DNA of 20,407 nucleotides, from positions 1,026,909-1,047,315 of the forward strand of contig FN649739.1 in the NCBI GenBank assembly GCA_000310025.1, written 5' to 3'. Positions 6,501-19,565 of this stretch are shown here, in pieces. The notes under the pieces were generated by a model. The model searched no databases, was not told where the DNA came from, and worked only from the letters and a program-made list of their open reading frames with translations. Source of the DNA: Ectocarpus siliculosus. Its lineage: Eukaryota; Sar; Phaeophyceae; Ectocarpales; Ectocarpaceae. Within the stretch, counting starts at the first letter, position 1, and each line of letters opens with the position of its first letter. The translations under genes and the position numbers were made by a program.

Positions 6501-9500
6501 CCTGTGTTTTTTAAGAGGAGACACTGCGATCCCCCGTGCGCCCTCAATTGCAGATACACCGCGACATACTGTTTTTGTTCCCGTAGGGCGGAGCACATGG
6601 CGACTTGACAACAGTGCTCTTCTTACACACCGAATTCTCTTCCTCTCTTGTGACTGACCACAGCCCTAGGTGACCGCACAAGTGGAGTGTTTAGTTTCGC
6701 AATCAGGAGGCGCTTTGGTCGGAGGCTTTGGTACCCGATGACAGGCTTAAGGCTTTAGTGCTGGGGAGATGCTTTTTTGCCTAACGTGCACATGAGAGCA
6801 CTAGATAAATAGGTCAGATCGGTGTTTGGAAGGTCAAATATGTACCACACCCACACTAACGTGTATATACCCCCCCCCCCGCCCTGAAATGGATGGTGAA
6901 CGAACGAACCAGGCCAGTGTCTAGAGGGCGGTACGTTCAAGCGATGCGGCGTGGACACACTGTGGTACGTGACGGGCACCAACACACAGTACCAGCTGCA
7001 CCACCGACCACTGGAAGACGGGGAAGATGTGAGCGTTGCTGCTGCTGCTGGTGTCGGTGTTGTTGTTGTTGGTTCGGGTGTTGTTTCAGAACAGGCGAGC
7101 TAATTTAAACACGAACTGGAACAGTTTTTTTGCTGGTTGTCTGTGCCACAGATCGAGATAGTATCAGTTGAGGCAGGTGTTAGCTTGCTGTGAGATGGTC
7201 GGTTGTGTTTGAATGTACGATATCAAGATGTGCTGGTGGATGAAAGTGGCATGAGGTGGTCGAGAGCAGCGGAATGGAGTGCGACCATGGGTCGACCCTG
7301 TTGTTTTGTTCCGGAGGCAAGACGTCGTCAGTGGGCAACACATTGCAGGCGACAGCAGTAGACAGGGATAACGAGACGAGAGTGTAAACCGTGTTTTCGG
7401 TCCTTGCTGCGTACTGTACCACTTGTGTTGGGTCCGACAAAGTGACAAATACACCGATTGGAGAGGTGGAATGAAAATCGAGAATCTGGTGTAGTTGGTT
7501 ATAACATTCTATTGGCAAAGAAAAAAAAATTTCCCCACTATTCCCCACAACAAGCTTTTGGTATTCATTCGTTCACTTTGTCTTAAAGACCCCCCGACGT
7601 CCAGGCCAGGCCCGCCGGAGGTAAAAAAAGGTTTGCAAAACATTTCTTTGTTTACCCTCGGTGTGATATGATTGGTGCAACCACGCGAACCGGTGGGGAG
7701 GAAATGGGACACGAGAAGAGACGGAAACAGCAACCAACCACGTTGTGGCAGTGAGGCCAAGTTTCACGACAATCACGACAATATCCGCGCTCTCACGGTA
7801 TCATGTTTCTGGAACCGGGTGCGTTTGTCGTTTTCCGTGTCTGCTTTTTATAGCCCACTGCGGCTGCTACCACTGCTGACTGTGTATTGTGCTACTGCTG
7901 CTGCTGCTGCTGCTGATCGTGTATTGGTGACAGGATACGTGCCTTGACAGAGTCAGCTGCGCGGGGGAGGGCTCCGGGCTAAAGCTTGGCGCGTGCAAGA
8001 AGTGCTGCGCAAAGGTGAGAGCGAACGGGAGCTTTTTATTTTTTCGGCGTACCTTTGCTTTTCCTCCTTCCTTGAAATTGACCCACGTTGGGAGACGACC
8101 GATTGCACCTGCTGATGCCGATTCTGATGCCACTGCTGCTGCTGATGATGATGATGCTGATGCTGCCAAATAATCACGCGCTAGTCGGCTGGCCAATGAA
8201 ATGACCTCAGTCTCAGTGCGGCTGAAAACAGAGAATGTCATGCGTGATCTGGGACCCCGGCGAATGGGCCACACGGTATAAGGCACGTCCACACGGTATA
8301 CAATCACGTGTGTGTGTTGTATGTGTGACAGGCGTGGAACATCCTGGGGGACGCGGAGAGCGGTTACATCCTCACCGAGGGGGACGGAAACCACAACTGC
8401 CTGCAGAGGGACGGGGAGTCGGCGAAGGTGGCACCCTGCGACTCCGGCTACGCCAGCCTGTCGCTGCAGTTCGCCTCGAAGGAAGACATCGCTCTCATGA
8501 TGAGCCCCGGAGCTAGGTGAGACAAGGGGCAAAGCGAGAAGAGGCGTGAGAGGAGAGAATACGGGGAAATGTCCGGTGTTTTTTTGTTTTTGTGTGTTGG
8601 AGAGGGGTCGGAGCGGTGGGGTGAGAGAGCCCCCAGAGCTACGTGAGAGCGGAGAATTACGAAAGAGACAATAACAGATGCCAAAAGACAACCATGTACG
8701 AGACAAAAGGAAAGAATGGAAGTTATGTCACAGATACCAAAAGATAGGAGTATGTAAGTAGTACGATACAAATTGAAACTGTATTTTTCTTTTTCGTGGA
8801 GGAATGTCGGAGGTGGAACGCGGTTTGTGCGGTAAAATGTACATCTGGCGTTCTTCGTTCCTTGTGGTGTACCGGTGTGGAGATTCCTCGGAAGGTATGC
8901 ACATCCGAACGCCTCTACCCACACTGCAGCACAACTGTCGTGGCTACCATTTTTCCTCGCTCTCACGCCCTACACACACGTGGTCCATGTATCATTGTGT
9001 GACTTTTGAGGGCTTTTTGATGAGCAAACGAATTTTCATATGTTGGTCGTTGCGTTGTCAGCAGCATCCAAGGCTGGCTAATCGCCCGCAGCAGTAGCAC
9101 ACAGATGGTAGATGTCTTGTTCACTACCATGACCGTCGCCATCCGTTTTTTCTGAATCCTCCCGCTCCGACCCCCCCCCCCCCCCCCCCCCCCCCCCCTT
9201 TACTGCTGTAGTACCGTCGCTCACATGTCTTCCTACCCTACACAATCGGGGCGTCCTGGACGCCTGTGCCCATCAGGGGTGAGATCGAAAGAGCGCACCC
9301 CTGTATACCCCACAACATACCCATCTTCTGGCAGAAAGCACGACCGACAAGATTCTATGGGGGAATGATCGACAGGTATTTCCGTCGTCAACGCTACATC
9401 CATATGTCTATTTTCGACCACCGGCCAGCCTTCGACGTTCCGTATTCTCGAATATTTTATTGACCCAAGGAGTACGACAAATTGTTCCGATTTCCGTGCT

Positions 9501-12500
9501 CGATTTTTTCGGCAACGGGTGTAGAAGGTGTTACCGAAAAGAGGGTACACACACATGAAAAAACGGAGCGGGTATGGTACCATCACACGGAACACGGGAG
9601 CGGTTCTCGCTAGCCTCAAGATTATCTTTGAATCGGGTGTAGTAGATGGCCAGTGCCCAACACGTGCACCCCTCGGCGCAAATGGAGGGTGGCTGTGTCG
9701 AAAAATAGTTCACGAACAGCACTTTTAAGCCTGTACATATATATCGTCTCGTTTCGAGAATGCATCACTCCACGTCAGCAACGCTCCTCTAGTGCATGCC
9801 GTCGAGAGCCCGGGTTCGGGGCATCCAACGTGCGCGCAACATGGAAATAAAGCGCGCTAGGAAACCTCAGGCCGTGAGACCGAATTACGCTCACCCATGC
9901 CTGTCCCGATACACAGAGTGCCTGTTCCGCTAGAGCCACCTTCTCCATGCTCCAACAAAAACACCAACACCACCAATGCTCCACACCTGGTCGGGGCAGC
10001 ACCCCCAGTGCTTGCCCCCGTCGTGGAAGACCGGGTTGAGCCTGTGGTACCGGCAGGAGTCACGCTGGTTTTCCGCCACTACGAAGTCCTTTTGGCACCC
10101 GAGGTTCACACAGCTGAGAGAAACATAGCCGGTAAGCGGGGCAACGCAGCGCAACACGCATATTCAACACGAGAGAGCGAGATAGAGAGAGAGAGAGACT
10201 NNNNNNNNNNNNNNNNNNNNNNNNNNNNNNNNNNNNNNNNNNNNNNNNNNNNNNNNNNNNNNNNNNNNNNNNNNNNNNNNNNNNNNNNNNNNNNNNNNNN
10301 CTCCTCCTCCTCGGCGATGAGAGAGCAGGTTCATCACGGCTGCCTCCGACGGCGACTTGAGCGCGGTCAAGACCTACCTCAAGGACGGGTTGGACGTGAA
10401 CAGCCAGGACTGGGACAAGCTCACCGCCCTCGTAGCCGCCGCCTCGCAGGGTCACCTCAAGGTCGTCAAGCATCTCCTCGACAAGGTGAGTCGGTCAGGC
10501 ATTTTTTTTTTTTTCTGTCGCTTGCAGAAGCAGTTTCTTACGAGGAGAACGGTTTGATCAAGGTGGTGAAGCTTCCCCTCCACGAGGTCAGGCAGTCGGT
10601 GACGAGAGGAACATAATTCAGATTTTATATATATATTATATTTATCTGACAAGAGCAATTTCTCCCAGAAGCAAGTACGATGTGATTAACGTGGGGAAGG
10701 TTATCGTTATCCTCGACAAGGTTATGTACAGGAGTCACGCAAGAGCAAAGGACCAGAAGAGTTTTTTTTTCTGCTCGTACCATGTAACAAATTGAAGGTC
10801 GTCTATATCCTCATGCATACGCATACGTTGACAGGTGGTATTTTTTTCTGTCAGCTTTCATTTTCCCCCCTTGGTAGGATTAGTTCCCATGGTTAATTCC
10901 CATAGTTCCTCCATGGCTATTTCCCATGGGTAAACCCTTCTGTTGTGGTCAGGGACGCGCTTCTCGACGGGTTGTCCTTCGTTCACCTATGCACGTAGTG
11001 TTTTTCTAGATTGGCGGGTGCTGGGAGGGCTTTCTCCCAGCAGCAATAGCGGCGAGAACACAAAACAGCGGCAGGACGGAAGCAGTGATCGTAAAAACTT
11101 GGCGCCCTCGTGGTTTGAGTCTCCGCTCCTCAAGTCTTTTTTTCGAAAAGGAAAGTAGAGCGTGCAGATTCACCACACGAGCAGCGGCGCTCTTCGACTT
11201 GACAGTGAAGACGTTCAAGCGACCATACTCTATGAGCTTCTTTCAACTTGGTTTACATGCCAAACATCAAATGAATGCCTTGGTGCTTTTTGGTGAAGAC
11301 CAGAACGAACAGCGTTGTTAGTTATTTTCTACTCAAACGATTGCACGTTATGTGAAACATGTCTACAAGCATGGTGTGATGCTCGTTTTTTTATCGCATG
11401 TAGAACACCTCTTGCCCTTTGTAACGCTTCCTGCCCCACCGGCACAAGATCCCTCTAGACCAGCGTGATCTACTCGTTTCTTCGTGACAGCAGTCGCGAC
11501 ATCAGTGTTTGCGCAAGGGTCCTTGCGTGTATTTAAAAATGATGGGGTCATTGTCGTGAAAAGCATGTTTTTGTTTCGACTTCGGGGATTCCCCGTTGGG
11601 CTACAATACGAGAACGTGTTCCCTCTTGAGGAGGAAATTGTGCGAGGCTCGAAGCCCGCGTAGCGGATGGCAGAGGAAGATGTTAAACGTAGACGCAAGA
11701 GCGATGATCGTAAAAACTTGGCGCCCTCGTGGTTTGAGTCTCCGCTCCTCAAGTCTTTTTTTCGAAGAAGAAAGTAGAGCGTGCAGATTCGCCACACGAG
11801 CAGCGGCGCTCTTCGACTTGACAGTGAAGACGTTCAAGCGACCATACTCTATGAGCTCTCCATCCCCCCTCTCCACCACAGATTGTTCATGGTCGGGACA
11901 CCGTTGCACCCCGAAGGCGCACAGAGCCTGAACCTGGCCACAGCTGTTTCTCAGATGTTGACTGACGTAGAAGGAAAGACACCACGAAAACCAAAGTTGC
12001 GGCTGTTGGTTTTGTGCCGCTTCGAAAAATGTCGGATGGGAGAAACAGCTATCGGTTGTTGGGTACATCCATCCATCCATTCATCCATCCATAATGGCGT
12101 GGCGACCGAAGTGTTTTTTCGCGTAACCCCATTTTTGCTTTTTTTTTTTCGCTTTGTTGCGGTTTGTATTTTGGCTTGGTCCGTCTCGTGAGAGTGTGAT
12201 GATGTTGGCCTCTTGTTTCACTGCGAGATGCCCTTTTGGCATTTGCATTTGCCGAGCGTAGTAGACAGAGGTGGGCGAAAGGGGTAGAAACACGGCCTTG
12301 CGTGTGACCCCCCCCCCAGAACTCTGCCAGTACCACGCTAGCTGGAGGTACGAGAGGCTAATAGAAATTTTATTCTCCGTAACATGGGAATTGGATATCA
12401 GAATCTGGGAGATGGTTCTAGAGAAGGTAGACTGCGGTGTTTCTCTATTTACTCTCTCTGCTCGTATCGCTGTGTGAACGGTAACTCACGCACTGTTGAT

Positions 12501-15500
12501 ATCCCTAATTTGTGTGAATGGGACACGACGCCATCAGTAGCAGCAGCAGCAGCAGCAGTAGCAAGGAAGCAAGGATCGTAAAAACTTGGCGCCCTCGCGG
12601 TTTGAGTCTCCGCCCTTGGTCTTTTTTTCGAAAAGGATAGTAGAGCGTGCAGATTCGCCACACGAGCAGCGGCGCTCTTCGACTTGACAGTGAAGACGTT
12701 CAAGCGACCATACTCTATGAGCTTCTTCGCGAGCTGTTGTTGTACTGTGCATCGTTTTGGTTAGTGAAAAACAGCGCCCTTGGTGCCACCACAGCCTCCA
12801 CTACCACCAACAACAAGAGGGGTTCCTGGGTAGCGACTTCTGAGTTTTTTTTGTGAAGACAACAGCAACATGGAGGCGGCAACAAGGATGTGTTTTCCAT
12901 GTCTGTTGGTCTTGTCTTGCACGACACCGCAGGGTGCCGACGTGAACGCCAAGGACAAGGACGAGATCTCGGGACTGATGGAGGCCTCCATCATGGGGCA
13001 CGTGGCCGTCGTGAAGGAGCTGCTCAAGGTAATAAAAACAGTTTTTGCGAGACAGGTTGGCGGTGTGTGATGCGAAGCAGGATTCAGGGTCGCCGTCGCT
13101 CCCTGTTATTGAAGCACCCCTCCCCCCCCCAATGAAGCACGACACCCCCCTCCATCCACGACGAATTCAGCGCCTGTGTGTAAGGATGTATGGATCAGCG
13201 CATAGAGATGCCACACAGGTCGAACATGTTTTTGATTACCGTTGTCAGTGTGACCCAGCGTCGTGCCGTGCCTCCCGAGCAGCGAGCAGAGGTGACGCGG
13301 AGTGATTTGCCTCGTTCGTTTGAACGTCTCGGGCGGGAGGGAGGGAGGGAGGGAGGGAGGAAGGGCAGAGGAGAGATTGTGCGTATTTGTTATACCCGTT
13401 GTCATCGTTGTTGTCGATTTTTTTTGCCTCTCGTTCTCTTGGAACTCGTGTCCTTCGCAGGCGGGAGCAGAGACAGGTGTATGTATGTCCTTGTTTGATA
13501 CCGTTGTCGGCCTCGTCTCGCCTTGGTGCCTCTCGTCCTCTCGTCCTCTCGTTTTATTTCGGAATTTCCTCTCCTCCACAGGCAGAGAATGAGACATGTA
13601 GGTATATACAGTATCCTTGTTTGACACCGTCGTCGCGTTGTCTTGGACTTTTTTGCCTCCTGTTGGCTTGGGTCCCCTTCCTCCCGACACAGGCGGGAGC
13701 AGACAAGAGAAGAGATGCATGCCGTTGTTTGATGCCATTGTCGTCCTCGTCGTCGCCGTCGTGGCCGACTCGCGTTCTTTTCCGGCTCGTTCGCTTGGAA
13801 CTTCCTCCCTTCGACACAGGCGGGAGCAGACTGGAGCTGTTTATCCTCATCCTTGTTTAATACCGTTGTCGTCGTCGTCGTCGTCGTCGACTTCGTCGTT
13901 GTTTCGCATTGTTTTCCGCCTCGCTCGCTTGGAACTCCCTCCCCTCGACACAGGCGGGGGCAGAGGTGGACGCGGAGGCGAAGTCCGGGGTGACCGCCCT
14001 CTGGCTGGCCTCCGGCGAGGGCCGAAAAGAGGTCCTCAAGGAGCTGCTCAAGAGCGGCGCGTCCGCCAACAACAGCCGCAGCGACGGGATCACGGCCCTC
14101 ATGGGGGCCGCCGCAGGCGGGCACGGAGAAGTCGTTGAGATGCTTCTCAAAGCAGGTGTGGAGGTGGTGCTGTATCTACAATTGTATTTATTTTTATTGT
14201 TTTTTCGGCGGAGGTCGGTTAGCTTGGGCCTCGAGGCAGCTTGAAAGTTTTTTTTTTTTTCAGGGTGTGTATAATAGTAGTTTGCATCTTTTTTTCAAGA
14301 AGCAAGGGGCTGCGAGAGGTTTGTTTTTCAATTGGAAGTGAATATTTGCACAACAACAGCAATGCCAACATCGATAAAGATCAACACGACATGAGAAAAT
14401 GAAAACCGCATCCAACACAGCAGTATTTCATGTTGCAACAGCAAACAACAAGCACGTTGAAGGTATTGCAGGGACAAAAACACCGAGGATACCAATAGCA
14501 GTATGTAGCAAAGCAGTAAGACATAAAAAGACATGAGCATCTGATAAGCAGCAGAAGCCAACGTGCAAAGGGTTGGGAAATGATTTAAGAAACCAAGAAC
14601 GGACGTCGTGATTTTCCACTTGCCCGTCCGACGCGCCAAGGGCTCACTTTGAGGCGAGGCGGCTGGGGGTTGGGGGAGGGGGCTGAACAAGCCCCGTCCC
14701 CCCCCTCGCCGTCCCTCATTCCACTGAGGCGTTTTGTGTGCGGGGGGTGGGGGGTCCGGCACCAAAAACGTGACGGTCTTAAACGTTTACTAGGACTGAT
14801 CCTTTACCCGGCACACACGCGCAACAGGCAATGCTTGCTTGCTTGCGTTTTGGCTTGAGTTTTTGTGGGTGACGTGTTATTTTTTTTTCCCTTGGTCAGA
14901 AGTATGGGTGTTTTGTGAAGCAAGGTCGCACACGTGCGTACAAGCGATTTCCGCGTCTCTATTGGTGAGGGTTGGTCGGGACCTTTTTGTTCTGTTTCTC
15001 TGTTTTTTGTCTTGTTGTTGGGAGGTGTCTTCGTGGCCCCGAATGTTCGTTCGTTTCGTTTGAAGACTCCAGGGGAGCATGGAGGAGGATGCTGTGCTGG
15101 ATAGAGATTAGAGCGGTTTTCAATTGGCGTGAAGTAGATACCAGGACAACGTTTTTGATGTACTTTCGTGCGCTTTTTGGTTGCAGGTGTTGATGAAATG
15201 GCAACCACCAGAGGCTCCCCATATTCCACCCGTCATTACCTGAGCGCAAACGTGTTATTTCCACAGTTTTTTGTTTTTCTCTCCGCCGCGCTGCAGTCGT
15301 TACGCGCGGTACCTTTCGCCCTTGAAAATAGTGTCTCTGAACCCGTTCCCGCTAATCGTCTCCGAAGGAATTCACGGTATTTGGGGCCGAGGTTAGTAGG
15401 TTCATTTTTGCGTGTGAAGGTCGGGACAAAATGTGAGTACCCCCCGGCGTTTATCTCAACTACTTGGATGCCTATCGCGATTGTCTCCGCACGTTTTTCT

Positions 15501-18500
15501 CGCACGCCAAACAAGCACTAACAATATAAAATGAAATGCAGGGGCGGACCTCGCCCCGGCGCCCATGTTCCCTCTCTCAACGAGACCCCTACAATTACAA
15601 TACGCGATCGCTTTCCGAGCTCCGTTGTTGTCTCGCACGCCAACACAAACCGCACCAACAACAACAATCATCAAAAACGCAGGGGCGGAAGTCGGCGCTA
15701 AGGACCACGACGACGTGACGGCCCTCATGAACGCCGCCGAGAGCGGGTCTCTGGAGGCGGTGGAGGCGTTGCTGGCCAAGGGGGCTGATCCCGGGTCGAT
15801 GAGCACGACGGCCTTTACTCCCCTCATCGTGGCCGCCGCCGGGGGCCACCTCGACGTCGTCAAGGTGCGGGGCGGTGTTGGTGGTTTGTTGTTGGTGGTG
15901 GATGTGGCGTTGTGTTGGTGGGTGTGATGGTGGTCGTAGCTTGATGAAGTTGTTTGGGTGGTGGGTGGCGGTTGCGATGTTGTGATGTTTGTGTCTTCAT
16001 TGATGTTGGGGGCTGCTGCAGGATCCCGCACTTGTGTCGTAGGTGACGTGGATGTTGGTGGCGGCCGGGGGTGTGTTGTGTTGTGTTGTGTTATGTTTGT
16101 TGTTGTTGTAGTGTTGTTTGGTTCTGATGACTCGGGCTCTGCAGTATCTTACCACGAGTTTTGTTCGTAACGCCGAGCCCCTTCTTTTTTTTTTATTGTT
16201 GCTGTTTTTTTTTGTTTGTCTCTAATGGGATATTTGGAACCCGCCAACCACATCACTTTGAAGCAAATGAAAAACAGCTATAGTGCGGCGAGAGAAGCGA
16301 ACTGTTGAAGGACACGTTTGTTTGGTTCGCAGGTATCGAGAGACCCCCCTCTCTCGTGATGCCCTTCCGTGGGCTGCGTGGTCAACGCTCCGATACAAGC
16401 TCACCAGGAGCCCCCCCCCCCCGCCCAAGCGATTTTGCCCCCCATCTCACTCAGTCTGACAAGACATGCATTTCCTCTTCCTTCTGTTTTTCTGTTTAAT
16501 GGGCGACAACAACAGGCGTTGGTAGCGAAGGGCATCAAGGTGGACGAGATGCACCCGGACGGCGTGTCGGCTCTCATGTACGCCTCCGCCGGCGGGCACC
16601 CGGAGGTGGTGAAGCTGCTGCTGGAGGGCAAGGGGCCCGGGAAGGCCGACCCCAACCTCAAGCACGTGCAGGTATGGACATGCGTGTTCGTAGTTTACGC
16701 AAGATATCACACCCCCTGGACCGATCTTTAGAGCTTCATTTCTCGGCAAGAAAAGCGGTGGAATCGTCTCGTAGAGAGCTTTCCACAAACGGATCATTTG
16801 ATATCGGCAGCTTTTCGTCGTGAGAAGCCGAGCGTTGAAAAATTGTCAAGGGGGGAGGGGTATCTTCTGCAACCTATGCATACGGCATGCACCTGCGGCC
16901 ATTCTGTTGACCCCACGAACAAGGATTTGCGGGTTCCATGAAAGTTTATTTTCCCGCGGAGGGTATGCACTCTTGGGAAATGCATGGGCAAGTCTGTTGT
17001 ATCTACGCTCGGTATTTTTTCTGTCGTACTTGTCGTGTCTTTTTCGTTTGGTCTTGTTGGATGGCCTTGCGCATCCATATGTACATCCGTGCCAGAGGCG
17101 CGTACGGATGGGCAAGCTTTGCGATCATGTGCTCGGCACTAGGCCGTGTTTTTGATGCCCTTCCATCCCCCCCCCCCCCCCCCCACGAACAAGTCGTCAC
17201 CTTGACGCCATGAAATAATTATGTTGTTTTTTCTCTTATTTGTGTCTTTTTTACCCTTGTTGGTGGTTTGTGTACGATTGATTCAATGTCTCAGGGGGGC
17301 ACTGCGTTGATGGAAGCCGCGACCTCGGGCAGCCAGGAGGTCGTGGACCTGCTTTTGGCGGCGGGGGCGGACCCCATGGTCAGGGACAAGGACGGAGTCT
17401 CTCCGCTCATGTCCGCCGCAGCTCAGGTACGCGGTTCGCATTTTTTCGGGTATAGGGCGTACTCGAACGAAAATGCACTTGTTGCTGTTGCTTGTATATA
17501 TATATATATCCTTTTTTTTCCATGTGGACGTTGACCTTGACCTTCTGAGAAGGAAACATGCCGATATACCGATGCTCGAGGTTTCAAGAGTCTTTTTCGA
17601 CAGGCGCTTTTTTCAGCCATTTTGTCACGTCCAATCATTTTGGTGTCTCGCCCCCGGGGGATGACGCGTTCTCAACATGACGTATGATTTTCCGTTTTGG
17701 AGTTGGAGAATGGATGGAGGAGGATGGCTACTTATGTGCGTACTCACCACAGGTTGTAAGACGTTGACAAAATCGCAGTGATCGATATCATTGCGACCGC
17801 CTTCTCACTTGGCTGCTCTCTGGGGGGGTACCTTGTACGTGTTTTATTTTCTTGTTGTCCTCGCATCCCGGAACAAGAAGTTGCTAAATAATGTTTTTTC
17901 GATCTCGTTTCTTTCTTTTTTTTTTTAAATGTCTTCCCTTGCCAGTGATGATCTTTACAATCCTACTCTGAATTCCATTGGGCCGGAAAAAAATATACCG
18001 GTTGGCGATGCGGTGAATTGGGGCAGTGGGGAAGGGCGGTGCTGCTGTCGTTGTCTTTGAGGGGCCAAAATGGCCCCTCTGTTGGCTCGCACGAGGCCCC
18101 ACCAATCCCCCTTTTCTGACAACACACACGCCGGTCGGTTTTTGTTTCTCCGGCTGTAACAAACAGTGGCACATGAAAAGGACAAACCATTACACACTTT
18201 TTTTCTGAGGCAATCGTGATTTTTTTTCTTGTTTTGTACAGCCGGCGTGAATGTGTAATACTTCAAGCATATCGTCGGCGTAATCTTGAGCGTTTTCAGT
18301 TCTCCCTCTGGCACTACAGTGACACAACCTCTGACACCACAGTAGTGGCAGAACCCGTTCTTTTTTATTGTTTTTGGCTTCGTTCTTTATCGCTCTCTCT
18401 TCTCGTCATGAAACCGCCACACGGCAGAGTTACCTTCCGTCGAGCACAGCATGAACAATGACTTTAGCGATCGTTCACCTTCCTTCTCTGTGTCACCCGC

Positions 18501-19565
18501 TACGCTGGTGCTTCGAAGAGTGAAATCTTGCCGCCTGCAATAAATGGACCGGAAAGTTCACACACACGCACACCCAGTAAGCGTGTTTGCGCGTTTCATC
18601 CCGCTCTAAGACTGATGTATCTTCATCGGCCAGCCGGTTAGCGCGCGGTCTATGCTTTCGCACTGTCATGTCGAGGCAAAGCTCCCCTCCCTCCCGTTTT
18701 TTTGCGTTTTCCTGAGCGTTGAGCCCTGTAGTCGGCTGTTTTTTTGTTTTTTTTTCTGCCGGTGATGATCTTTACAATCCTACTCTGAATCCCCTGGGTC
18801 GGGAGGAAAGGTGCCGGTTGGCGATACGATAAATTGGAGGAGTGGGAAACGGGCAGTGCTGCAGTTGCTGTCTTGAGGGGCCAAAATGGCTCCTCTGTTG
18901 ACTTGACACAAGGCTCTGCTCCTCCCCCGCTCTTACAACGCATATGCCGGCCGGTTCCTTTTCTCCGGCTATAACAAACAGTGGCACATGAAAAGGACAA
19001 CCATTACACACTTTTTTCTGAGGCAATTTCGATTATTTATTTTTTTTGTGCGTTCTATTCTGGATGTGTACATACATTCGCCATGACCTTGGGCACGTCT
19101 CCGTGTGACGCTATGTACTTTCAACGGCAGCTCCCTTTTTTGTTTTCTTTCGTCATTGCTGGGAGAGGCGCTACTGCTATTTCCTTTTGTATCCCTCTCG
19201 TCTCAGCCTTTTTTTGACCGGCACTGCTATTTCAGCATCGTCAATTCCGTTCTTTTTTGTCTTGGTTCCCCAATTTCGTGGTTGGTGTCTCACTTTCTGA
19301 CCTCGTACCCCCCCCCCCCCTTCCCCGGGCGCGGGTCCCCCACCGTGGTCCTATCTTCGCTGTTCGCACACCCATGCAGGGGCGGACCGAGGCTTGCAAG
19401 GTTCTCATCGCCAAGGGCAACGACGTGAACGCCATGGCTAACTCCGGGGGCACCTCCCTCATGTTCGCCGCCGGCGCGGGGCACACGGAGGCCGCCGAGG
19501 TCTTGATCGCCGCGGGGGCCGACGTTAACGCCAAGCTAGAGGCGAAGCCCGAGTTCCTTGAGCAG
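3422..19565 (+). CDS. Secreted ankyrin-repeat protein, multi-exon, 3' end missing
   Basis: Spliced gene whose exons are listed separately. From 7934 onward nine exons join with no phase conflict: 0-0, 0-2, 2-0, 0-0, 0-1, 1-0, 0-0, 0-0, 0-0, giving 459 codons. With exon 1 (42 codons plus one base) and the tentative exon at 6375, the partial protein is about 518 residues. Order: signal peptide, Cys-rich linker, a two-cysteine module, then eleven ankyrin repeats in the pattern G-x-TALM-xx-A-xx-GH-xx-VVK-LL-xx-GADVNA. Ankyrin repeats bind partner proteins. Because of the signal peptide the protein probably enters the secretory pathway and acts outside the cell or in its endomembranes, but its partner is unknown. 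All exons use GT-AG borders and mostly G/C third positions. The last visible exon ends at a donor (19566), so more exons must lie beyond the contig. The architecture is well supported; the function is not. Confidence 0.85.
3920..3962. repeat. CAG-rich microsatellite
   Basis: Interrupted CAG/GAG run ending in eight or more perfect CAG units just before AGCTCG. It lies in the long first intron with no coding role seen. Its reverse complement gives the alanine or serine runs seen in shadow frames. Confidence 0.9.
4991..5015. repeat. Short telomere-like CCCTAA stretch
   Basis: The stretch reads GCCCTAGCCCTAACCCTTAA followed by C5, i.e. three or four imperfect CCCTAA units. CCCTAA/TTAGGG is the common telomere unit in stramenopiles. 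It is short and sits inside a gene, so it is either a chance C-rich run or a repair scar, not a chromosome end. Confidence 0.4.
5367..6243. mobile_element. Candidate non-autonomous DNA element with inverted ends
   Basis: A 16-base sequence at 5367-5382 (CCCTGACCGATCAGGC) recurs as an exact reverse complement at 6228-6243. The motif CTCAGGCA and close variants are repeated near the right end (6134, 6162, 6175, 6218), and the reverse complement TGCCTGAG occurs near the left end (5440), so similarity extends inward as scattered subterminal motifs. This is the layout of a small transposon-derived element. There is no transposase; the minus-strand frame at 5253-5531 crosses the left end and matches nothing I recognise. 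No clear target-site duplication was seen. The core 16-mer is itself nearly palindromic, which weakens the case. Confidence 0.35.
6375..6424 (+). CDS. Tentative small exon linking signal peptide to Cys-rich part
   Basis: A 50-base segment between an acceptor (CTAATCTGCAG) and a donor (GGG|GTGAGC). It is open in exactly the frame needed: phase 1 in from exon 1 and phase 0 out to 7934. It would encode VYRKGYNLRYQHCTRGG, adding one cysteine ahead of the next Cys-rich exon. Against it: third positions are only about half G/C, unlike the secure exons, and short segments with passable splice sites are common by chance. It is the only candidate I found that resolves the phase conflict. Confidence 0.25.
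6425..7933 (+). other. Intron sequence, no exon seen
   Basis: Mixed composition. It includes a C10 run near 6871, TGC/GTT-rich sequence at about 7036-7085 and a GCT microsatellite at about 7890-7916. The minus-strand frames between 7164 and 7776 look random in composition and lack paired splice sites. A 33-base segment ending at a GTGAGC donor near 7029 has the wrong phase to connect exon 1 to 7934. Confidence 0.45.
7934..8014 (+). CDS. Ankyrin gene Cys-rich exon
   Basis: 81 bases, 27 codons, phase 0 at both ends, between GGTGACAG and the strong donor AAG|GTGAGA. It was found by asking what could precede the exon at 8332 in phase. It encodes five cysteines: a TCLDRVSC stretch (C-x4-C) followed by GACKKCCAK at the end. 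Third positions are mostly G/C. Such closely spaced cysteines fit a disulphide-bonded region behind a signal peptide. The intron that follows is 317 bases. I do not recognise the fold. An alternative acceptor at 7952 would make a shorter exon in phase 1 that joins exon 1 directly (length 2 mod 3), and that is a real alternative. Confidence 0.6.
8332..8516 (+). CDS. Ankyrin gene exon with two-cysteine module
   Basis: 185 bases between GTGTGACAG and AG|GTGAGA, phase 0 in and 2 out. The two bases left over are completed by the first base of the exon at 10329, giving Arg then FITAASDGDL, which is the start of ankyrin repeat 1. It encodes about 62 residues: AWNILGDAESGYILTEGDG, then NHNCLQRDG, then APCDSGYASLSLQF, then SKEDIALMMSPGAR. 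The CL...APCD...LQF spacing loosely recalls one repeat of a ricin-type beta-trefoil lectin (CL...C...QxW), but the tryptophan is replaced by Phe and only one unit is present, so this is a resemblance only. Strong third-position G/C bias supports coding. Confidence 0.8.
9171..9198. repeat. C28 homopolymer
   Basis: Twenty-eight consecutive C. The true length is unreliable because homopolymers of this size are often miscounted in assembly. Confidence 0.9.
9987..10113 (-). CDS. Antisense exon encoding most of a CHORD zinc domain
   Basis: Read on the minus strand, a 127-base segment lies between the acceptor GTTTCTCTCAG and the donor CAG|GTGTGG, with phase 2 in and 0 out. It encodes 42 residues with C-x4-C-x13-C-x2-H-x6-H-x7-CC, starting CVNLGCQKDF and passing SCRYHRLNPVFHD to KHWGCC. 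This spacing and the N, YH, P-x-FHD, K-x-W-x-CC positions match CHORD domains of RAR1 and CHP-1, which bind zinc and work with HSP90 and SGT1. The last part of the domain (DF..F...GC..G.H) should be in the next exon but was not found on this strand down to 8517. No upstream exon was found before the N gap. It may be an exon of a gene nested in the ankyrin intron, or a captured or dead fragment. The domain call is firm; its status as an expressed gene is unknown. Confidence 0.75.
10170..10200. repeat. GA-rich simple repeat at gap edge
   Basis: GAGAGCGAGATAGAGAGAG-type sequence runs right up to the N gap, and CTCCTCCTCCTC follows the gap. The break is therefore probably caused by a simple repeat that did not assemble. 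Confidence 0.8.
10201..10300. other. Assembly gap, 100 N
   Basis: Exactly 100 N, the conventional filler for a gap of unknown size. It lies within the ankyrin intron and next to the antisense CHORD exon, so exons of a nested gene could be hidden here. Confidence 1.
10329..10485 (+). CDS. Ankyrin exon: repeat 1 and most of repeat 2
   Basis: 157 bases, acceptor GAGAGCAG and donor AAG|GTGAGT, phase 2 in and 0 out. Repeat 1 reads FITAASDGDLSAVKTYLKDG then LDVNSQ, the usual helix-turn-helix plus the DVN hairpin. Repeat 2 begins DWDKLTALVAAASQGH then LKVVKHLLDK and is completed by GADVNAK in the next exon. An in-frame stop at 10318 shows that the exon cannot extend further left. Repeat 1 is a capping type: it lacks the TPLH/TALM start. 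Confidence 0.88.
10883..10935. repeat. Repeated TTCCCATGG units
   Basis: Four close copies of TTCCCATGG or TCC(C)ATGG in about 50 bases, several carrying the palindrome CCATGG. No function is seen. Confidence 0.6.
11087..11238 (+). repeat. Dispersed 152-base repeat, copy 1
   Basis: Starts GATCGTAAAAACTTGGCGCC and ends ATACTCTATGAGCT. It differs from copy 2 at about 3 of 152 positions by eye. Plus-strand frames of all three copies are open over the same stretch, but the shared frame simply reflects shared DNA. It contains GGTTTGAGTCTCC, which resembles a tRNA/SINE B box, but a convincing A box at the right distance is not clear. Confidence 0.9.
11706..11857 (+). repeat. Dispersed 152-base repeat, copy 2
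   Basis: Same orientation and borders as copy 1. Differences are two bases after the T-run (GAAGAAG for GAAAAGG) and one at CACC/CGCC. High identity points to recent duplication or gene conversion. Confidence 0.9.
12574..12723 (+). repeat. Dispersed 150-base repeat, copy 3
   Basis: Same orientation, preceded by a CAG microsatellite. It is more diverged than copies 1 and 2: CGCGG for CGTGG, a 2-base shortening at CCGCCCTTGGTC, and ATAGTAG for AAAGTAG. The ends are the same as in copies 1 and 2. Confidence 0.9.
12933..13028 (+). CDS. Ankyrin exon: end of repeat 2 and repeat 3
   Basis: 96 bases, 32 codons, phase 0 at both ends, acceptor ACACCGCAG and donor AAG|GTAATA. It encodes GADVNAK, closing repeat 2, then DKDEISGLMEASIMGH and VAVVKELLK of repeat 3. 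One exon is about one repeat long (33 residues) with borders at the LLK|GA position, which makes it a unit that could be added or removed without changing frame. Confidence 0.9.
13332..13361. repeat. GGGA tandem repeat
   Basis: Six or more GGGA units followed by GGAAGGGC, in the intron before the exon at 13954. Confidence 0.85.
13441..13953 (+). repeat. Tandem array of copied 3' splice sites
   Basis: The end of this intron is a diverged tandem array. A block of TTGGAACT.CCTCCC, then ACACAG or close, then GCGGGAGCAGA recurs with AG ends at 13460, 13581, 13692 and 13819, before the authentic acceptor at 13953 (CGACACAG|GCGGGGGCAGAGG). Start-to-start spacings are 121, 111, 127 and 134 bases. 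Between them lie related GTTTGATACCGTTGTCG stretches. Each copy carries a pyrimidine tract, an AG and a version of the first exon codons, so they are decoy acceptors. The authentic one is the only copy followed by ankyrin coding sequence. Confidence 0.8.
13954..14155 (+). CDS. Ankyrin exon: repeats 3 end, 4 and most of 5
   Basis: 202 bases, phase 0 in and 1 out, donor GCAG|GTGTGG. It encodes AGAEVDAE, closing repeat 3, then repeat 4 (AKSGVTALWLASGEGR, KEVLKELLKSGASANNS) and repeat 5 (RSDGITALMGAAAGGH, GEVVEMLLKA). It is followed by one base of a glycine codon finished in the next exon. The third-position G/C bias is very strong. In repeat 4, GH is replaced by GR and DVN by SANN, both common variations. 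Confidence 0.9.
14156..15682 (+). other. Intron with duplicated 3' end
   Basis: 1527 bases. From 14156 to about 15470 it is mostly AT-rich or T-rich, with a G/C-rich patch at 14640-14755. No exon is supported; the long minus-strand frame at 14804-15229 has no paired splice sites and a biased composition. The last 200 bases hold a duplicated acceptor region, entered separately. Confidence 0.6.
15482..15682 (+). repeat. Duplicated 3' splice region with one decoy acceptor
   Basis: TCTCGCACGCCAA, a variable A/C-rich stretch, then GCAGGGGCGGA occurs twice: ending with AG at 15541 (decoy) and at 15682 (used). The spacing is 141 bases. Only the second copy continues into AGTCGGCGCTAAGG and ankyrin coding sequence. 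The layout is the same as in the array before 13954, but with two copies. Confidence 0.7.
15683..15864 (+). CDS. Ankyrin exon: repeats 5 end, 6 and most of 7
   Basis: 182 bases, phase 1 in and 0 out, donor AAG|GTGCGG. The first two bases complete the glycine begun at 14155, giving LLKAGAEVGAK across the junction. Repeat 6 reads DHDDVTALMNAAESGS, LEAVEALLAKGADPGSM; repeat 7 begins STTAFTPLIVAAAGGH, LDVVK. Repeat 6 has GS in place of GH. Confidence 0.9.
15865..16515 (+). other. Intron, GTTGG-rich
   Basis: 651 bases, with long G/T-rich stretches of GTTGGTGG and TTGTGTTG type between 15866 and 16110, then T runs. No exon on either strand is supported. Confidence 0.6.
16516..16671 (+). CDS. Ankyrin exon: repeats 7 end and 8
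   Basis: 156 bases, 52 codons, phase 0 at both ends, acceptor ACAACAACAG and donor CAG|GTATGG. It encodes ALVAKGIKVDEM, closing repeat 7, and repeat 8 (HPDGVSALMYASAGGH, PEVVKLLLEGKG, then PGKADPNLKHVQ). Repeat 8 is about four residues longer than the others because of the glycine/lysine/proline insertion between LLLE and ADPN, which would lengthen the loop after the second helix. Confidence 0.9.
16672..17294 (+). other. Intron, no exon seen
   Basis: 623 bases from GTATGG to ATGTCTCAG, including a poly-C tract at about 17167-17184. No coding sequence is supported on either strand. Confidence 0.6.
17295..17426 (+). CDS. Ankyrin exon: repeat 9 and start of 10
   Basis: 132 bases, 44 codons, phase 0 at both ends, acceptor ATGTCTCAG and donor CAG|GTACGC. 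It encodes GGTALMEAATSGS, QEVVDLLLAAGADPMVR, then KDGVSPLMSAAAQ of repeat 10. The exon ends inside the first helix of repeat 10, so unlike the others this border does not fall between repeats. Confidence 0.9.
17941..18220 (+). repeat. Dispersed 280-base repeat, copy 1
   Basis: Runs from GCCAGTGATGATCTTTACAA to CTGAGGCAATCGTGAT. It has long shared blocks with copy 2, such as CAATCCTACTCTGAAT, GAGGGGCCAAAATGG and AACAGTGGCACATGAAAAGG. No terminal inverted repeat or coding sequence is seen. Confidence 0.85.
18758..19034 (+). repeat. Dispersed 280-base repeat, copy 2
   Basis: Same orientation as copy 1, about 820 bases downstream in the same intron, starting GCCGGTGATGATCTTTACAA. It is diverged by roughly a sixth of positions by eye, with small indels, so it is an older duplication than the 152-base family. 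The first 30 and last 60 bases are best conserved. Confidence 0.85.
19380..19565 (+). CDS. Ankyrin exon: repeats 10 end and 11, last in window
   Basis: 186 bases, 62 codons, phase 0 at both ends, acceptor CCCATGCAG and donor CAG|GTTCGT. It encodes GRTEACKVLIAKGNDVNAM, closing repeat 10, then repeat 11 (ANSGGTSLMFAAGAGH, TEAAEVLIAAGADVNAK), and LEAKPEFLEQ, which leaves the ankyrin pattern. It has no stop codon, and nothing resembling the next repeat appears before the contig end, so the protein is truncated by the assembly. Confidence 0.9.

What the first reader, a model, noticed from the sequence alone, without database searches (positions are those of the whole stretch)
9987..10113. CHORD zinc-domain exon on the opposite strand inside an ankyrin intron
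Seen: a splice-bounded 42-residue open segment on the minus strand with C-x4-C-x13-C-x2-H-x6-H-x7-CC. Known: this is the spacing of the CHORD domain of RAR1/CHP-1, HSP90 and SGT1 partners involved in plant immunity. Inference: a nested antisense gene, or a captured exon, lies inside a secreted ankyrin gene. The final part of the domain and any start exon are not visible, and an N gap lies 88 bases away.
Basis: partly seen in the sequence, partly recalled or inferred. Interest (0 to 1): 0.75.

Follow-up and report, generated by a model that had tools for sequence, protein, structure and literature searches.

The report
Misplaced CHORD gene piece beside gap
The zinc-domain exon is genuine sequence, but it is an exact copy of part of an ordinary gene held on another contig, sits between a long run of C and an assembly gap, and is most likely an assembly error rather than a gene nested inside the ankyrin gene.

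Summary
In detail: window 9987-10113 (minus) is a splice-bounded 42-residue exon carrying the first two thirds of a CHORD domain (Pfam PF04968, 57 bits, cut-off 24.6, E 3e-15), with six of the eight CHORD zinc ligands. The inference of a nested antisense gene does not hold. The 1021 bases 9180-10200 are 100% identical to C8:2812999-2814019 of the same genome. There they form exon 7 and flanking intron sequence of a two-CHORD gene. In the window the copy starts inside a 28-base poly-C run and stops at the last base before the 100-N gap. On C8 the match also ends in a 19-base poly-G, where a high-copy repeat begins. Both sides of the window's gap belong to one ankyrin gene: the exons join in frame, and a paralogue reads through the junction without an intron. 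The CHORD piece is therefore the intruder. Best reading: a chimeric contig end joined through homopolymer C/G (about 0.82). Rival: a very recent duplication into the intron (about 0.13). No sequencing reads were available, so the two are not finally separated.

The parts
9987..10113 (-). CHORD exon (first two thirds of a CHORD domain), identical to exon 7 of the CHORD gene on C8
   Evidence: Pfam CHORD 57 bits; splice signals and spacing; genome-wide CHORD scan
9180..10200 (-). 1021-base stretch 100% identical to C8:2812999-2814019 (exon 7 plus parts of both flanking introns)
   Evidence: string comparison True
9171..9198 (.). 28-base poly-C run in which the identity with C8 begins; C8 has 19 G at the same place (L011:6001-6019)
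10201..10300 (.). assembly gap of exactly 100 N; the copy ends at the base before it
8332..8516 (+). exon of the host ankyrin gene (acceptor ACAG|GCG, donor AG|GTGAGA)
   Evidence: joins in frame to 10329; this exon itself has no Pfam match at E 0.01
8517..10328 (+). ankyrin-gene intron that, as assembled, holds the poly-C, the CHORD piece and the gap
10329..10485 (+). next ankyrin exon, acceptor GAGAGCAG|G
   Evidence: Pfam ankyrin models over cut-off on this part of the joined peptide

Best explanation
The CHORD exon in the window belongs to the genome's own CHORD gene on contig C8 and is misplaced here by the assembly. The contig to the left of the 100-N gap ran into a long poly-C in the ankyrin intron. 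Reads starting in the poly-C/poly-G run of the CHORD gene's intron on C8 were then wrongly overlapped with it, which added about one read length (1021 bases) of CHORD-gene sequence to the contig end. The piece ends in a GA repeat at the gap. Shown: exact identity, the limits at poly-C and gap, the fuller gene context on C8, and that the two sides of the gap form one ankyrin gene. Inferred: that the join is false and not a real recent duplication. If real function is asked of the exon, it is that of exon 7 of the C8 gene: the first part of the second CHORD of a two-CHORD protein, by family knowledge a zinc module that binds HSP90 and SGT1-type CS domains.
For: The DNA search scored two places, the window and C8, both 100% over the query. 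The identical stretch is 1021 bases with 0 mismatches and 0 gaps. It begins inside the window's 28-C run and ends at the last base before the 100-N gap. Left of the poly-C the window does not match C8. Right of the gap, 10301-11000 matches nothing but itself. The 1399 C8 bases just past the piece found no second copy. On C8 the same exon follows six further exons (my reading of splice signals) on the same strand, including a complete first CHORD (91.4 bits, profile 2-63 of 63), in sequence without N. Ankyrin exons 8332-8516 and 10329-10485 join in frame. The paralogue at C9:2420032-2420223 reads through the junction in one open frame (58% identity over query 43-106, of which 20 residues lie left of the junction), so the two sides of the gap belong together. 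The C8 poly-G is the start of a high-copy repeat: of 53 matches other than the query itself, 45 begin at query 98-113, in or just before the poly-G at 102-120, so such runs are shared by many places.
Against: No reads were available. The perfect identity over 1021 bases is a little surprising if a single error-prone read end made the join. A real, exact 1-kb duplication could itself have broken the assembly at its edge, so the gap's place is not independent proof. Four other contig ends tested (window 10301-11000) carry no exact copy from elsewhere (0 of 4), so this fault is not shown to be frequent. The 100-N length is read as a placeholder from recall of assembly practice, not from a record.
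Confidence: 0.82

Rival explanations
1. A real, very recent DNA-level duplication: 1021 bases or more of the C8 CHORD gene (exon 7 with intron flanks) were copied in inverted orientation into the ankyrin intron, perhaps by template switching at poly-C. The exact repeat then broke the assembly and left the gap. The exon would be a non-functional passenger, or at most a source of a short antisense transcript.
For: Identity of 100% is possible for a recent event; a 1-kb exact repeat would itself cause a gap; intact splice signals.
Against: The breakpoint falls inside a homopolymer at the place where a high-copy repeat begins on C8, yet no part of that repeat is carried along. The other end coincides with the gap. 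There is no divergence at all, whereas 45 of 53 listed matches of the neighbouring repeat are 93-98% identical to the C8 copy and the other 8 less.
Confidence: 0.13
2. A complete antisense CHORD gene nested in the ankyrin intron.
For: Real CHORD exon with splice signals on the minus strand.
Against: Six upstream exons are on C8 in contiguous sequence. The window has only 28 bases between the gap and the next ankyrin exon. The genome-wide CHORD scan shows no other CHORD match on C14; a motif scan of the window for the end of a CHORD gave 10 matches, judged by eye as chance.
Confidence: 0.02
3. The false join is on C8: the CHORD gene really continues from the poly-G into the left part of the window (inverted), and the C8 repeat beyond the poly-G is misplaced.
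For: The C8 sequence beyond the poly-G is high-copy repeat followed by N wherever read over about 19.6 kb, so that join is also not secure. The end of the second CHORD was not found downstream on C8 either.
Against: Neither scan shows a convincing end of the CHORD on the minus strand left of the poly-C, though an exon as short as this could be missed. The ankyrin exon at 8332-8516 belongs with the exon right of the gap.
Confidence: 0.03

Closest known systems
CHORD-domain proteins: RAR1 (plants), Chp1 and melusin (animals)
   Same: Domain signature, zinc-ligand spacing, and two CHORDs in the C8 gene (ligands and tandem pairing from passages of PMC2935968).
   Different: The window holds only part of one domain, without the last two zinc ligands, start or further exons. 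The C8 gene has an N-terminal region of about 100 residues with no Pfam match over cut-off and no PDB match at E 1.
Chimeric contig ends next to scaffold gaps (kind named from general knowledge)
   Same: Exact copy of a distant locus, limits at a homopolymer and at an N gap.
   Different: Not proven by reads.

Membership tests
CHORD domain (PF04968) | Pfam score over the curated cut-off | tested here: met
   57 bits against 24.6, profile 2-46 of 63
CHORD domain (PF04968) | Eight zinc ligands (C159, C164, C178, H181, C196, C197, C213, H218 of the RAR1 CHORDII structure; passage of PMC2935968) | tested here: inconclusive
   Six of eight present with identical spacing (C, C, C, H, C, C); the last C and H would be in the next exon, not recognised in the window or on C8 as far as read
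RAR1/CHP-1 type protein | CHORDs in tandem pairs (passage of PMC2935968) | tested here: met
   Met by the C8 gene (complete first CHORD and start of the second), not by the window copy, which has one partial CHORD
RAR1/CHP-1 type protein | C-terminal CS domain (animal type) | tested here: inconclusive
   Seven CS matches in the genome at E 0.1 or better, none on C8, but the C8 gene runs into N over about 19.6 kb
Plant RAR1 | Small zinc-binding C3H motif between the two CHORDs | not tested
   Named in a passage of PMC2935968; not looked for in the C8 gene
Nested antisense gene | Further exons and a start on the same strand within the intron | tested here: not met
   No other CHORD match on C14, motif scan without convincing match; exons 1-6 are on C8. 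The 100-N gap itself could not be read
Assembly chimera | Reads do not support the join | not testable with these tools
   No reads held; indirect signs only

The most novel reading that the evidence does not exclude
A very recent inverted duplication placed a spliceable CHORD exon, antisense, in an intron of an ankyrin gene, giving a fresh case of exon capture at a homopolymer breakpoint.
Probability: 0.12. Interest if true: 0.3.

Novelty: not a real feature. Interest (0 to 1): 0.08.

Why it matters
It prevents a false report of an immune-type gene nested in an ankyrin gene. It also shows a cheap test that would catch similar cases: search any surprising exon that lies within a read length of an N gap against its own genome before interpreting it. 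The C8 gene itself shows that this genome has an ordinary two-CHORD protein.

Tried and rejected
Tried: a search for the missing last part of the second CHORD with a guessed peptide gave nothing (no positive control, so an empty answer proves little). Motif scans for it gave 11 matches in the window and L011 (where the third stretch, L015, was all N) and 2 matches in L052, L053 and L011; all were judged by eye as chance, and an exon that splits the motif would be missed. A scan for CS-domain exons gave seven matches, none on C8. Nine CHORD matches below the cut-off elsewhere in the genome were not followed up. Four other contig ends were tested for exact copies elsewhere: 0 of 4 had any (one search scored 40 of 174 candidates, and one search showed one 85% local repeat). 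The end right of the gap that closes at C14:1058559 and the C8 gap ends were not tested.

Species: not identified. PMC11541908 was seen only as passages. It reports 11,588 gaps and a contig N50 of 33 kb for Ectocarpus V2 and a near-complete V5, which would be the place to look if this genome is Ectocarpus; that is not shown here. Paper searches: 'CHORD domain' with 'brown alga' found 0 papers. RAR1, CHORD, stramenopile, SGT1 (three of four) found 52, 20 listed, of which PMC2935968 was seen as passages. CHORD, HSP90 and Ectocarpus together found 6, seen as a listing, one of which (PMC4513859) was searched for primers only. Searches were seen as listings; from them only PMC11541908 and PMC4333798 (passages) were opened.

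Rejected: chance motif; nested gene.

Full report
What was reported and what is there. The minus strand of window 9987-10113 holds a 127-base exon with canonical splice signals (TCTCAG before, GTGTGG after) and 42 codons. hmmscan of its open frame gives CHORD PF04968 at 57 bits against a cut-off of 24.6, E 3e-15. Solved relatives are CHORD containing protein-1 (2yrt, E 1.2e-7) and RAR1 (2xcm, E 4e-4), the only 2 sequences at E 1 or better. The spacing matches the zinc ligands listed for the RAR1 CHORDII structure in a passage of PMC2935968: six of eight ligands are in this exon, and the last C and H would be in the next one.

Where it comes from. A scan of the whole genome for CHORD gave 12 matches at E 10 or better, 3 over the cut-off: the window copy, a match with the same score on contig C8 (both 56.3 bits, E 9.2e-13), and a second CHORD exon 1.7 kb before it on C8 (64 bits). 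In the 14 control genomes of that search none was over the cut-off. DNA search with window 9200-10199 rang at 2 places, the window itself and C8:2813000-2813999, both 100%. Direct comparison shows 1021 identical bases, window 9180-10200 against C8:2812999-2814019, with no mismatch or gap. On C8 the exon is the seventh of a gene read from sequence without N: an N-terminal part of about 100 residues without a Pfam match over cut-off or a PDB match, a complete first CHORD over three exons (91.4 bits, positions 2-63 of 63), a linker exon, and then this exon, whose phase fits the exon before it (read by eye). The exon boundaries on C8 are my reading of splice signals, without transcripts.

The limits of the copy. 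In the window the identity begins inside a run of 28 C (9171-9198) and ends at 10200, the last base before a gap of exactly 100 N. Window 8500-9250 matches C8 only from 9180 onwards, that is from within the poly-C. Window 10301-11000 matches only itself. On C8 the match ends in a run of 19 G, after which comes a very common dispersed repeat: 3034 candidates at first look, 40 scored, 54 matches listed; of the 53 other than the query itself, 45 begin at query 98-113, in or just before the poly-G at 102-120. Beyond it C8 reads N wherever it was read from 2814863 to 2834444 (only probes of 200 bases were read between 2827001 and 2833200). The 1399 C8 bases just past the copy's other end found no second copy in the genome.

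Which neighbour is the intruder. The ankyrin exons on the two sides join in frame, AG|GTGAGA after 8516 to GAGAGCAG|G before 10329. The right-hand exon scores as ankyrin repeats (3 models over their cut-offs); the left-hand exon has no Pfam match at E 0.01. A paralogue at C9:2420032-2420223 (58% identity over query 43-106, 20 residues of it left of the junction) reads straight through this junction in one open frame, with no intron and no CHORD there. Both sides of the gap therefore belong to one gene, and the CHORD piece between them is foreign to it.

Explanation. The simplest account is a chimeric contig end. The contig met poly-C in the ankyrin intron, sequence beginning with the poly-C of the CHORD intron was overlapped by mistake, and the contig ended about one read length later in a GA repeat. 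The scaffold then continued with the true next contig after a placeholder gap. The read length and the placeholder rest on general knowledge of assemblies, not on a record. The rival is a real and very recent duplication. It is not excluded, because an exact 1-kb repeat could itself have caused the gap, and because four other contig ends tested showed no such copy (0 of 4), so the fault is not shown to be common. The coincidence of the left limit with a homopolymer at the edge of a repeat, without any of that repeat being carried along, and the complete lack of divergence, favour the artefact. I put 0.82 on the artefact, 0.13 on a real duplication, 0.03 on a false join on C8, and 0.02 on a nested gene.

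Comparison and novelty. The C8 gene is an ordinary member of the CHORD family as far as it can be read; the end of its second CHORD was not found in the stretches read, and a CS domain could not be placed. The window finding as a nested or captured exon is most likely not a real feature.

Noticed in passing
L011:6001-6862 (C8:2814001-2814862): A very high-copy dispersed repeat (3034 first-look candidates, 40 scored); 45 of 53 listed matches other than itself begin at the poly-G run and 45 of 53 are 93-98% identical.
   Followed up: partly
L011:631-2130 (C8): N-terminal region of about 100 residues of the C8 CHORD protein has no Pfam match over cut-off and no PDB match at E 1; by eye it could be a ubiquitin-like fold, which was not tested.
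   Followed up: partly
window 11066-11242, 11705-11857, 12553-12727: Three copies (92-98% alike) of one stretch of about 150-180 bases between exons of the ankyrin gene.
   Followed up: no
window 18115-18237 and 18931-19049: Two copies, 85% alike, of a stretch of about 120 bases.
   Followed up: no
C9:2419645-2420223 (minus; L029): Paralogue of the ankyrin gene that lacks the intron in question.
   Followed up: yes
window 1 and 20407: Both window ends lie directly at assembly gaps, of 1770 and 11244 N.
   Followed up: yes
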